64,000 nucleotides of DNA from Halomonas sp. HAL1 (GTDB lineage Bacteria; Pseudomonadota; Gammaproteobacteria; Pseudomonadales; Halomonadaceae), in assembly GCF_030544485.1 (NCBI RefSeq), contig NZ_CP130610.1, positions 868,001 to 932,000 on the forward strand. The letters are read 5' to 3'. This document shows, piece by piece, positions 11,323-15,600 of this stretch. The notes under the pieces were generated by a model that saw only the letters and a program-made list of their open reading frames with translations, was not told the DNA's origin and ran no database searches. The position numbers and the translations under genes were made by a program. Position 1 is the stretch's first letter, and every line of letters begins with the position of its first letter.

Positions 11323-11940
11323 TTAGCGGCTAAACCGGTAACGAATTTTAGGTAGCGTACGAGCGACAGAGGGAAGGCGGGTGACCATCACCAGCGCCGC
11401 AATAGCGGCATACATCGCCCACTCCTGCATATCGGCGCGTACTACCCAGAAGAAGTGCAGCAGTACCAGACCCAAAATGGCGTAGGAAAACTTGTGTAGC
11501 GGTTTCCAGCGTTTGCCTAAGCGCTTCATCGCCCAGCGGTTGGACGTAGCGCCCAGTACGGCAAGGCCGATCAGCGCGATCATGCCGACAATAATGTAGG
11601 GGAGTTTGACGATTTCGCTGCCTAGCAGCGTCCAGTTAAGCCCCAGAATAAACAGCGCGTAGCTGAGCATATGCAGGGTGGCGTAGGCGAGTGTCCAGAG
11701 ACCGAGCTGGCGCCGGATCAGCGCAAAGCCTTTCCAGCGGGTAAGCTTGGTAAGTGGGGTAAGGCTAAGGGTGAGCAGCAACATCCACAGCCCGCCGATA
11801 CCGATATTCAGCAGTAGGTAGCGTCCAGGCTCGGGGCCGGCAGCGTTAGTCGCTACCTGCCAACTCCAGAACAGCAGCGGTGCTAGCGCGGCCAGAAACA
11901 CGCCCACGCGCCATGCTAACCATATACGTGGGCTGGCCAT
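11323..11940 (-). CDS. msrQ: MsrQ, haem membrane subunit of the MsrPQ system
   Basis: Inner-membrane b-type haem protein that passes electrons from the respiratory chain or a flavin reductase to periplasmic MsrP. It is 205 aa with about six membrane helices, and conserved His residues in the helix segments YATLHMLSYALF and LHKFSYAILGLVLLHFFWV. Its ATG overlaps the TAA stop of msrP by one base (TAATG), so translation is coupled. It belongs to the ferric reductase-like transmembrane family. Confidence 0.93.
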   Translation of the reverse strand: MASPRIWLAWRVGVFLAALAPLLFWSWQVATNAAGPEPGRYLLLNIGIGGLWMLLLTLSLTPLTKLTRWKGFALIRRQLGLWTLAYATLHMLSYALFILGLNWTLLGSEIVKLPYIIVGMIALIGLAVLGATSNRWAMKRLGKRWKPLHKFSYAILGLVLLHFFWVVRADMQEWAMYAAIAALVMVTRLPSVARTLPKIRYRFSR

Positions 11941-12956
11941 TAGTAATTTTCCTTCAAGTTCATACCCGCATAGAGCTCGGCGACTTCGTCGGCATAACCA
12001 TTAAACATTAGGGTATCGATGGTGTTGGGGTTGAAGAGGCTGTTGGGCAAACGACGCTCGGTGGCTTGGCTCCAGCGAGGATGGTCAACCTCGGGGTTAA
12101 CGTTGGCGTAAAAGCCGTACTCATCAGCGGCGATCTTCTGCCAGGAATTCACCGGCTGCTCTTCTACCAGCGATATCCGCACAATCGACTTGATGCTCTT
12201 GAAGCCGTATTTCCACGGCACGACCAGCCGCAGAGGGGCGCCGTTTTGGTTGGGCAGTTCCCGGCCGTACATGCCCATGGCCAGTAGCGTTAGCGGGTTC
12301 ATGGCTTCATCCAGGCGTAAGCCTTCCACGTAGGGCCAATCAATGATCGAAAACGAGGAGCGCTGCCCGCGCATTTGCTCAGGATCGACGAGGGTTTCAA
12401 AGCGTACGTATTTGGCTTTGCTGGTAGGGTCGGCGCGTTTGATGATTTCGGCCAGTGGAATACCCAGCCAGGGAATTACCATCGACCACGCCTCCACGCA
12501 ACGCAGGCGGTAAATACGCTCTTCAAACTGTGACGGTTTGGCGAAGTCCTCTAGGGCAAAGCGACCGCCGTTGTTAACTTCGCCATCGACCACCACGCTC
12601 CAAGGTTCCGTCTTCAGACTGCCCGCATGGCGGGCAGGGTCGCCCTTGTCGGTGCCGAATTCGAAAAAATTGTTGTAGCCGCTGGCATCATCAAAGGGGG
12701 CGATCTTGTCTTTTTTGGGGTCGCTGGGCGTAATCGCTTCCCACTGAGTCTCGCTGATTTTTTCCTTCAACCACGCTGGCGCATTGCCATCAGGAACATC
12801 CGAATAATCGGCATTAGCTTGAGCGTGGCCGGAAAGGGCCAGCCCCGCACCCAAGCCCGCCATACCCCCCATGAAGCGTCGGCGGGAGAGGTAAATAGAT
12901 TCCGGCGTGACATCGGATTCGTGTAAGTCACTCGGTTTGGCAATCTTTATTAGCAT
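11940..12956 (-). CDS. msrP: MsrP, periplasmic molybdopterin methionine sulfoxide reductase
   Basis: Catalytic subunit (338 aa) that reduces both stereoisomers of methionine sulfoxide in periplasmic proteins, using a molybdopterin centre. The twin-arginine signal SRRRFMGG (residues about 24-31) sends the folded protein through Tat. The oxidoreductase molybdopterin-binding domain follows, with the Mo-ligand Cys in the segment YRLRCVEAWSMVIPW. The family segments PLRLVVPWKYGFKSIKSI and SWQKIAADEYGFYANVNP are present. GGAG precedes the ATG. It starts 71 bases after the sensor kinase gene and is coupled to msrQ, as in the E. coli hprRS-msrPQ locus. Confidence 0.95.
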   Translation of the reverse strand: MLIKIAKPSDLHESDVTPESIYLSRRRFMGGMAGLGAGLALSGHAQANADYSDVPDGNAPAWLKEKISETQWEAITPSDPKKDKIAPFDDASGYNNFFEFGTDKGDPARHAGSLKTEPWSVVVDGEVNNGGRFALEDFAKPSQFEERIYRLRCVEAWSMVIPWLGIPLAEIIKRADPTSKAKYVRFETLVDPEQMRGQRSSFSIIDWPYVEGLRLDEAMNPLTLLAMGMYGRELPNQNGAPLRLVVPWKYGFKSIKSIVRISLVEEQPVNSWQKIAADEYGFYANVNPEVDHPRWSQATERRLPNSLFNPNTIDTLMFNGYADEVAELYAGMNLKENY

Positions 12957-13027
12957 GGGGTGTCTCCACTAGCGATGGATAAGGTGTGTGTTACTACTGT
13001 GACCAGTTTGTACAAGATTTATCACAG

Positions 13028-14577: not shown

Positions 14578-15279
14578 TTATTCGCGGAAGCGATACCCCA
14601 CCCCCCAAACCGTCTGGATAAATGTCGGGTGAGCGGGGTCCGTTTCGATCTTGCCGCGCAGCCGGTTGATGTGGGTATTGACGGTGTGCTCGTAGCCTTC
14701 GTGGCTGTAGCCCCACACAGCGTCGAGTAGTTGAACACGACTAAATACCCGCCCGGGATGGTTGGCAAAGTGCCAGAGCAGATCAAACTCCCGCGCGGTG
14801 AGTTCGACGGCTTGCTCGTGTATAAACACCCGCCGCCGAACGGGATCAATACGTAGTCCATCGGTGATTAACGCTTCACTGCAGGTTTCCGCGACGGGCG
14901 TGGATGCCATGGCATCCACGCGTCGGAATAAGGCCTTCACCCTGGCAGAGAGTTCGGCCACGCTAAAGGGCTTGGTGAGGTAATCATCTGCCCCGATTTC
15001 CAGGCCCAGTACACGATCCAATTCAGTACTTTTAGCCGTGAGCATCAGTACCGGAACGTAGCCTGGGCCAGCGCGGATTTCGCGGCAAACTGACAGCCCA
15101 TCGATGCCAGGTAACATCAGATCAAGAACCACCAGGTCGATTCCCCCTTCACGAAAACGTGCAAGCCCGGTATCACCCCGCTCATAAAGAACGGGGTTCA
15201 TGCCGAGTTCGGCGACGTGTATACGGAGGAGCTCACCAATACCCGGGTTATCCTCGATAATCAGTACGTTTCGTGTCAT
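14578..15279 (-). CDS. OmpR-family response regulator of the msrPQ cluster
   Basis: A 233-aa response regulator. The receiver domain (residues 1-115) has acidic pocket residues near 9-10, phospho-acceptor Asp53 in VVLDLMLPG and Lys103 in LTKPF. The winged-helix DNA-binding domain spans about 130-233 (TAREFDLLWHFANHPGRVFSR). It is co-directional with the Met-rich peptide gene (45 bases downstream of it) and with the kinase. It likely controls the Met-rich peptide and msrPQ. The long inverted repeat at 15617-15647 is a candidate target. Confidence 0.9.
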   Translation of the reverse strand: MTRNVLIIEDNPGIGELLRIHVAELGMNPVLYERGDTGLARFREGGIDLVVLDLMLPGIDGLSVCREIRAGPGYVPVLMLTAKSTELDRVLGLEIGADDYLTKPFSVAELSARVKALFRRVDAMASTPVAETCSEALITDGLRIDPVRRRVFIHEQAVELTAREFDLLWHFANHPGRVFSRVQLLDAVWGYSHEGYEHTVNTHINRLRGKIETDPAHPTFIQTVWGVGYRFRE

Positions 15280-15324
15280 AGGCGCCTGGCATTTAAATGC
15301 CCTAGATAAGTGTGTAGCCGAGGC

Positions 15325-15600
15325 TTACATGCCTTCGCTTTCCATGTCCTCTTCCATTTCCATATCGCCCTCGGACATGCTGTCATCTTGCATATCACTG
15401 TCTATGGAATCGCCCATGGAATCGCTCATGGCGTCACCCATTGAGTCGGCCATATCGTCCGAATTCATGTCGCTATTTTCCATCGACTCATGCATGTTGT
15501 CTTCCATCATGCCCTCGTCAGACATTTTCTCATCGGCATGGCTGGTCGTTGCTATCAGGCTGAGTAGACAGATGGCAGCGAAGGTAGTGAACTTGTTCAT
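15325..15600 (-). CDS. Exported methionine/aspartate-rich peptide (MrpX-like)
   Basis: A 91-aa protein with a signal peptide ending SHA (residues 1-22). The mature part is about 69 residues, of which 16 are Met. Nearly all the rest is Asp, Glu, Ser, Asn and Gly, with one Lys and no aromatic residues. Met recurs every 3-5 residues (DSM, DAM, SDM, GDM). This composition fits a disordered oxidant sink whose Met sulfoxides are reduced by MsrP, as described for MrpX with YedY/YedZ in Azospira. That link is inferred from composition and cluster position, not from sequence alignment. GGGGA precedes the ATG. It is first in the cluster, before the response regulator. Metal binding by Met/Asp is an alternative. 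Confidence 0.8.
   Translation of the reverse strand: MNKFTTFAAICLLSLIATTSHADEKMSDEGMMEDNMHESMENSDMNSDDMADSMGDAMSDSMGDSIDSDMQDDSMSEGDMEMEEDMESEGM

What the first reader, a model, noticed from the sequence alone, without database searches (positions are those of the whole stretch)
11323..15600. Combined oxidant-sink peptide, two-component system and MsrPQ repair cluster
In transcription order the genes are a Met-rich exported peptide, an OmpR-type regulator, a sensor kinase, msrP and msrQ (coupled by TAATG), with an S8 protease close behind. E. coli has the regulators with msrPQ (HprRS) but no Met-rich peptide. The described Azospira system has MrpX with YedY/YedZ but uses a sigma/anti-sigma pair. 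This locus merges both. It suggests a self-contained periplasmic oxidant defence: the peptide absorbs hypochlorite-type damage and MsrPQ regenerates it.
Basis: partly seen in the sequence, partly recalled or inferred. Interest (0 to 1): 0.8.

Follow-up and report, generated by a model that had tools for sequence, protein, structure and literature searches.

The report
Switchable methionine shield and repair locus
A bacterium carries a small methionine-packed exported peptide, an oxidation-repair enzyme pair and a dedicated two-part sensor in one block; the combination was already known in one E. coli lineage, but related bacteria place different repair enzymes beside the same kind of sensor and DNA switch, which points to a general bacterial defence module.

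Summary
In order on the minus strand lie a 91-aa exported Met/Asp/Glu-rich peptide, an OmpR-type regulator (RR), a sensor kinase (HK), MsrP and MsrQ. The S8 protease is not linked to the unit. The claimed novelty does not hold as worded: uropathogenic E. coli OrhK/OrhR already joins a two-component system, an MsrPQ-like pair and a Met-rich peptide (PMC8550376).

Comparative work goes further. (1) The two-component system has a conserved operator, GTGA-N7-GTGA, ahead of the peptide or the regulator; it is spacing-specific and not enriched in control loci. (2) Peptide and msrPQ are separable: of 20 genus genomes with the kinase, 10 have both, 9 only msrPQ and 1 only the peptide. (3) Relatives place other methionine sulfoxide reductases beside the same regulators: a periplasmic MsrAB fusion where full-length MsrP is missing, MsrAB in other families, MsrPQ behind tandem operators. 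In one genus a Met-rich repeat is fused to MsrAB.

Best reading: a dedicated periplasmic methionine-oxidation regulon in which the peptide is a sacrificial Met sink and the repair enzyme is interchangeable. That MsrP recharges the peptide remains inference. A new variant of a known kind.

The parts
15325..15600 (-). Met/acid-rich exported peptide, 91 aa; mature part (after SHA) 69 aa: 16 Met, 27 Asp+Glu, no Cys/Trp/Tyr/Phe/Arg; proposed sacrificial methionine sink
   Evidence: signal-peptide cleavage judged by eye; no Pfam hit; NCBIfam TIGR02953 only 15.5 bits, cut-off 41
15711..15725 (-). Operator copy 1: GTGACACTTTTGTGA (GTGA-N7-GTGA)
   Evidence: the only one of 4 genome-wide matches to GTGAYNHNTTYGTGA that is not inside an open frame
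15667..15681 (-). Operator copy 2: GTGATTCTACTGTGA (GTGA-N7-GTGA)
15694..15699 (-). TACACT, possible -10 element 11 nt after operator copy 1 (inferred from conservation only)
   Evidence: alignment, sequence, coordinates; no promoter prediction run
14578..15279 (-). OmpR-type response regulator (Response_reg + Trans_reg_C), 233 aa
13028..14560 (-). Sensor histidine kinase (HisKA + HATPase_c), 510 aa; Met77 (numbering) in the N-terminal sensor part is present in 28 of 28 aligned near relatives
12997..13027 (-). CTGTGATAA...GTCACAG stretch between HK and msrP, possible second regulator site (inferred)
   Evidence: TGTGAT within 170 nt of msrP in 19 of 19 TCS-bearing loci; in 1 of 22 near-type TCS-less loci, the one with an HK remnant, and in 2 of 7 TCS-less loci of the genus with the second MsrP type; coordinates
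11940..12956 (-). msrP, molybdopterin methionine sulfoxide reductase with twin-arginine start (by eye), 338 aa
11323..11940 (-). msrQ, haem membrane subunit, 205 aa, overlaps msrP (TAATG)

Best explanation
A dedicated two-component regulon for periplasmic methionine oxidation. The kinase senses an envelope oxidant or its damage; the regulator binds GTGA-N7-GTGA direct repeats and switches on the peptide-RR-HK unit and, by read-through or a second site, msrPQ. The exported peptide, about a quarter Met in a highly acidic and probably unfolded chain, takes up oxidant on its methionines. MsrP, fed by MsrQ from the quinone pool, reduces methionine sulfoxide back, in cell proteins and probably in the peptide. 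The repair enzyme is interchangeable: relatives put MsrAB beside the same TCS, in one genus fused to a Met-rich repeat. Shown here: gene content, conservation, operator pattern, association. Inferred: signal, RR binding, peptide as sink, peptide as MsrP substrate.
For: Gene families. Peptide composition kept, rough dN/dS 0.2 in 12 copies. Each of the 12 genus genomes in which the peptide was found has RR sequence beside it, in one as a 129-nt remnant. All 20 genus HK loci have msrP, the peptide or both. Operator: N7 spacing 136 sites against 20-52 for spacings 3-6 and 8-16 and a shuffled mean of 21; 66 of 136 lie in a 1050-nt stretch upstream of the RR, 13.85 expected if uniform; 64 control loci show no N7 excess (21, range 9-33); at least one copy at all 20 genus TCS loci and the broken one. 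In relatives operators precede the Met-rich gene (L216, L217, L225, L230) and the Msr operon (L213-L216, L235). G215, with only a 29.6-bit MsrP match, has an MsrAB fusion next to RR-HK. Msr genes in 14 of 60 class-level HK loci against 2 of 64 control loci with the same queries, Fisher p 0.0009. Met-rich repeat fused to MsrAB in L213-L215. In print, the UPEC TCS activates its MsrPQ-like/peptide operon on oxidant (passages).
Against: Nine of 20 TCS loci lack the peptide and one lacks msrPQ, so neither needs the other. No induction, binding or substrate data. msrP itself has no full GTGA-N7-GTGA in 18 of 19 TCS loci, and TGTGAT also occurs before msrP in 3 of 29 TCS-less loci of the genus. 46 of 60 class-level HK homologues have no Msr in the fetched stretch. 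The Pseudomonas/Comamonadaceae loci with MsrB/MsrA (L038, L039, L046, L050) show no operator upstream of the RR, nor does L179. Control loci come mostly from other phyla.
Confidence: 0.67

Rival explanations
1. Copper or silver defence: the Met/acid-rich peptide is a Cu(I)/Ag(I) binder like a periplasmic metallochaperone, the TCS is a metal sensor, and MsrPQ repairs Met damaged under metal stress.
For: Met residues bind Cu(I) in periplasmic copper proteins; E. coli msrP is induced by copper through CusSR and MsrP partly repairs CusF (passages). HK scores 153.5 and RR 164.4 bits with the heavy-metal TCS subfamilies.
Against: Both scores are below the cut-offs of 292.55 and 279.2. The mature peptides have 1-3 His and no Cys. 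Relatives carry MsrAB in place of MsrPQ, which points to Met oxidation. I did not search for copper-efflux genes.
Confidence: 0.15
2. The peptide is an accessory or reporter for the sensor kinase, with its redox state read by the HK, rather than a bulk sink.
For: Where found it is next to the RR and is the first gene of the unit; small periplasmic partners of sensor kinases are known (recalled: CpxP).
Against: Nine genomes keep HK, RR and operator without the peptide; composition is kept while length and sequence drift, unlike a binding partner.
Confidence: 0.1
3. Peptide and MsrPQ sit together only because both are TCS targets; MsrP repairs ordinary periplasmic proteins and the peptide is not its substrate.
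For: Separable in evolution; reported MsrP substrates are SurA, Pal and CusF (passages).
Against: A Met-rich repeat fused to MsrAB in L213-L215 suggests that bait and repair enzyme work on each other; E. coli MsrP acts on several oxidised proteins.
Confidence: 0.3

Closest known systems
UPEC OrhK/OrhR with c3566-c3567-c3568 (PMC8550376; abstract and passages seen)
   Same: TCS next to an MsrPQ-like pair and a small Met-rich peptide called an MrpX homologue; oxidant-induced; regulator binds the promoter, with a proposed site of TCACA and TGTGA half-sites.
   Different: Peptide is numbered last and the TCS is not co-transcribed with c3566-c3568; c3566 is annotated cytochrome B; the proposed site is an inverted repeat TCACA-N15-TGTGA, not GTGA-N7-GTGA; linked there to hemolysin. 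Orthology of the TCS not tested: I did not fetch that region because it adjoins a toxin operon.
Azospira suillum MrpX with YedY/YedZ-type genes and a sigma/anti-sigma pair (Melnyk 2015; paper not held; known from recall and from citing papers)
   Same: Met-rich periplasmic peptide plus YedYZ-type reductase; sink-and-repair idea.
   Different: Sigma/anti-sigma control (recalled); the window has a TCS and an acidic peptide.
Brucella BcrS/AbcS-BcrXQP (PMC8315932; passages seen)
   Same: MXKDX-repeat Met-rich peptide with MsrQP homologues, HOCl-induced.
   Different: ECF16 sigma/anti-sigma control.
E. coli HprRS-MsrPQ (recalled; passages)
   Same: OmpR-type TCS controlling msrPQ.
   Different: The window RR is not HprR by model score; no Met-rich peptide in that locus (recalled).
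Salinisphaera halophila L053
   Same: RR 54% identical, divergent from a Met-rich peptide gene and a YedY-like gene.
   Different: Cytochrome b561-type protein in place of MsrQ; YedY-like protein below the MsrP cut-off (107.2 of 207 bits); MSHDDGM repeats; HK on a long, uncertain branch.

Membership tests
MsrPQ | MsrP and MsrQ curated NCBIfam scores | tested here: met
   476.3 vs 207 and 233 vs 130 bits
MrpX / pentapeptide MXKDX repeat protein (TIGR02953) | curated score of the family model | tested here: not met
   15.5 bits, cut-off 41; relatives L225 32.3 and L230 29.5, also below
MrpX-type sink | small exported Met-rich peptide next to a MetO reductase | tested here: met
   export judged by eye
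MrpX-type sink | peptide is oxidised by HOCl and reduced by the neighbouring reductase | not testable with these tools
   needs protein assay
Sigma/anti-sigma Mrp regulon (Azospira, Brucella) | ECF sigma and anti-sigma genes beside the cluster | tested here: not met
   the adjoining genes scanned are a TCS, a DUF2157 protein, an S8 protease and a flavodoxin-like protein
HprRS | RR reaches the HprR model cut-off | tested here: not met
   140.5 bits, cut-off 353
Orh-type locus | TCS + MsrP/MsrQ-like pair + Met-rich peptide together | tested here: met
   against PMC8550376
Orh-type locus | RR/HK orthologous to OrhR/OrhK | not tested
   UPEC sequence not fetched
GTGA-N7-GTGA TCS family (defined here) | operator upstream of the peptide or RR | tested here: met
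   two copies in the window; all 20 genus TCS loci have at least one

The most novel reading that the evidence does not exclude
One two-component family with the operator GTGA-N7-GTGA is, in its clade around the window, a general bacterial regulon for periplasmic methionine oxidation. It couples a renewable methionine bait to whichever methionine sulfoxide reductase is at hand (MsrPQ, MsrAB, YedY/b561). In some lineages bait and enzyme are one protein, a self-recharging antioxidant.
Probability: 0.45. Interest if true: 0.78.

Novelty: new variant of a known kind. Interest (0 to 1): 0.6.

Why it matters
The sacrificial-methionine idea rests on a few loci with different regulators. Here related sensor-regulator pairs recur with unrelated repair enzymes and a definable DNA switch. 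That predicts regulon membership from sequence, and offers a natural Met-rich/MsrAB fusion in which bait recycling can be measured inside one protein.

Tried and rejected
S8 protease as a member: rejected, no linkage. HprRS kinship: rejected by model score. Peptide-family assignment by Pfam and NCBIfam: no model reached its cut-off. Direct protein search with the peptide found only 2 relatives, and with the Salinisphaera peptide 1; low complexity probably defeats word search, and genome synteny worked instead. The genome-contig scan with the RR kept 80 of at least 592 hits, mostly unrelated OmpR-type regulators from other phyla; 64 of these served as controls. AlphaFold on the HK alone gave mean pLDDT 50 and was not used for a fold search. 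Three other matches of the operator pattern in the own genome lie inside open frames, so no wider regulon was claimed. Those 7 loci (L151, L152, L154-L156, L159, L160) had been left out of the 22. dN/dS was computed on a repeat-rich alignment and is rough. Literature searches for the layout and for the Met-rich/MsrAB fusion found only the papers cited; the library holds open-licence PMC papers only, so absence there is weak.
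Full report
Observation. The peptide (15325-15600) has a typical signal sequence by eye and a mature part of 69 residues with 16 Met and 27 Asp/Glu. The RR (14578-15279) starts 45 nt after it, the HK (ATG at 14560, stop at 13028) follows, then 71 nt, then msrP (11940-12956) and msrQ (11323-11940), coupled by TAATG. MsrP and MsrQ pass their curated NCBIfam cut-offs, and MsrP aligns to E. coli YedY (1xdq) at E 2.5e-102. RR and HK carry the expected Pfam domains. The RR is nearer the MtrA and PhoB models than HprR (223.5, 211 and 140.5 bits), all below cut-off. 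The window lies in a 4.44-Mb genome; no tool named the organism.

Prior art. The combination is not new in kind. PMC8550376 (abstract and passages) describes UPEC OrhK/OrhR, which directly activates c3566-c3568: a cytochrome b/MsrQ-like gene, an MsrP-like gene and a Met-rich peptide that the authors call an MrpX homologue. It is induced by oxidant, and the regulator site they propose is an inverted repeat TCACA-N15-TGTGA. PMC8315932 (passages) describes a Brucella ECF-sigma version with an MXKDX-repeat peptide. The Azospira paper is not held.

Distribution in the genus (82 genomes). MsrP (E <= 1e-60) is in 71, the HK (E <= 1e-100) in 20, the peptide (E <= 0.01) in 12. I read all 20 HK loci (window). 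Ten have peptide-RR-HK-msrPQ; nine have RR-HK-msrPQ (in L167 msrQ runs off the contig) with no Met-rich frame found; one (G029, L158) has peptide-RR-HK and no MsrP match in its genome at E <= 0.001. The twelfth peptide genome (G069, L174; 80% complete) keeps the peptide with a 129-nt RR remnant and no HK or MsrP match. Outside the genus, G135 (L178) has all five genes. So peptide and msrPQ come apart, but each HK locus of the genus has at least one of them. Of the 52 genomes with MsrP and no HK match I fetched 29 loci: 22 with the near MsrP type, 7 with a second type. In several of the 22, msrP abuts DUF2157 directly; in others a 551-aa protein or transposase-like frames lie between. The S8 protease follows neither state (3 of 18 against 8 of 22, Fisher p 0.29).

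Peptide evolution. Twelve copies differ in length (63-96 aa) and repeats, but the mature part stays at 23-29% Met and 29-47% Asp+Glu, with no Cys, Trp, Tyr or Phe. Rough dN/dS is 0.16 (signal) and 0.20 (mature). Composition seems to be what is kept, as expected of a sink and less so of a folded binder. It does not reach the MXKDX model (15.5 bits, cut-off 41).

Operator. Aligning promoters showed a conserved block, GTGACACwTTTGTGA...GCGCGATACACTcT, ahead of the peptide, or ahead of the RR where the peptide is missing, plus in most a second GTGA-N7-GTGA; in L158 and L174 the first copy is degenerate and only the second is intact. The window holds both (15711-15725 and 15667-15681, minus strand); GTGAY-N6-GTGA matches 3 times in the window, 0.75 expected, and 2 of 100 shuffles reach 3. 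Over 79 loci of the wider TCS family the N7 spacing occurs 136 times; the other spacings from 3 to 16 occur 20-52 times, and 20 first-order shuffles give a mean of 21 and a maximum of 29. Sixty-six fall in the 1050 nt that end about at the RR start, against 13.85 if uniform (one of the 79 loci, L041, could not be placed). Sixty-four loci of other OmpR-type regulators show no excess at N7 (21; range 9-33), nor do the 22 TCS-less loci (3). All 20 TCS loci of the genus and the broken L174 have at least one copy. In the own genome the tighter pattern GTGAYNHNTTYGTGA has four matches, one for the reversed control, and only the peptide promoter copy is outside an open frame. That suggests a local regulon. 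Upstream of msrP, TGTGAT is found in 19 of 19 TCS loci and 1 of 22 near-type TCS-less loci; the one is L128, which retains an HK fragment. It also occurs in 2 of the 7 second-type TCS-less loci (L152, L155), and hitch-hiking cannot be excluded, so this site is the weakest part.

The repair enzyme is interchangeable. In G215, of the same family, RR and HK (77% identical) are followed by a 411-aa MsrAB with a signal sequence (by eye). Both Msr domains pass their cut-offs, and the genome's only match to MsrP is 29.6 bits over 115 residues. A scan of 369 class genomes found HK homologues (E <= 1e-80) in 61, own genome included. I fetched 60 of the 61 matches outside the own genome. Fourteen of 60 have an Msr in the stretch: MsrAB in L213-L216, L225 and L248; MsrB in L226, L230 (contig end), L233, L252 and L253; MsrPQ in L235; MsrA 4.2 kb off in L264; MsrB/MsrA in L272. 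With the same queries the 64 control loci had two distant YedY-type hits; Fisher p 0.0009. Among the 16 best loci, five have Msr-type genes: three Pseudomonas and one Comamonadaceae with MsrB and/or MsrA beside the RR, and L053 (Salinisphaera) with a Met-rich peptide, cytochrome b561 and YedY-like set. Met-rich frames precede the RR in L216, L217, L225 and L230, with operators ahead of them. In L213-L215, one genus, a repeat of the type MEKMPMKKDMM is fused in front of MsrAB (435, 440, 420 aa), and an operator lies between HK and that operon. In L235 four tandem GTGA lie between HK and the gene that leads into msrPQ.

Tree. In an HK tree of 82 rows the window falls in a set of 15 (SH-aLRT 91, quick method, below the program's starred level), 14 of which have an Msr and/or a Met-rich frame; seven of the 15 are close kin from the window's family, and L220 is the exception. 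A separate set of five (100) all have Msr genes. Most other members (46 of 60 fetched) have no Msr in the stretch. So the Met-oxidation role is claimed for the clade around the window, not for the whole family.

Mechanism. Shown: gene content, conservation, operator pattern and association with Msr. Inferred: an oxidant signal, RR binding, the sink role, and MsrP acting on the peptide. G029 (peptide, no MsrP) has only separate MsrA and MsrB matches, like the other genus members searched, so the peptide can at least persist without MsrPQ. The copper rival is kept at 0.15, since E. coli msrP also answers to copper via CusSR and MsrP partly repairs CusF (passages).

Verdict. Real and conserved, already known in kind, with a new layout and a broader, testable family picture.

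Noticed in passing
L213:2848-4152, L214:7470-8789, L215:2918-4177: Met-rich repeat segment fused to the N-terminus of an exported MsrAB, beside the same TCS family, with a thioredoxin-like gene (by eye) between HK and it.
   Followed up: partly
window 8804-9382: Flavodoxin-like (Flavodoxin_2) protein; found near msrPQ in 6 of 19 TCS-bearing and 11 of 22 TCS-less fetched loci. Could feed the quinone pool that MsrQ uses (idea only).
   Followed up: no
L120:5188-6843 and same place in L121, L123, L125, L137, L138: A 551-aa conserved protein (looks like a glutamate-synthase-type FMN protein, by eye) sits where the peptide-TCS unit sits in the window.
   Followed up: no
G023, G075, G076, G085 second MsrP copies; L151-L156: A second MsrP type, about 52-57% identical, occurs in the genus, alone or beside the first.
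   Followed up: no
L219, L221, L222, L224, L227, L228, L229, L231, L232: Many non-Msr members of the TCS family sit behind one or two exported proteins with a shared 'LTNLTNGxxFTPLL' type motif (spondin-like, recalled, not scanned), with the GTGA-N7-GTGA operator ahead in several.
   Followed up: no
L174:2608-3064 in the reverse orientation used (G069:C75): Broken locus: peptide frame present, RR reduced to a remnant, no HK or msrPQ match.
   Followed up: partly
window 15813-18398: Divergent DUF2157 protein, a second membrane protein and a small exported protein form a block next to the unit that is found with or without the TCS.
   Followed up: no
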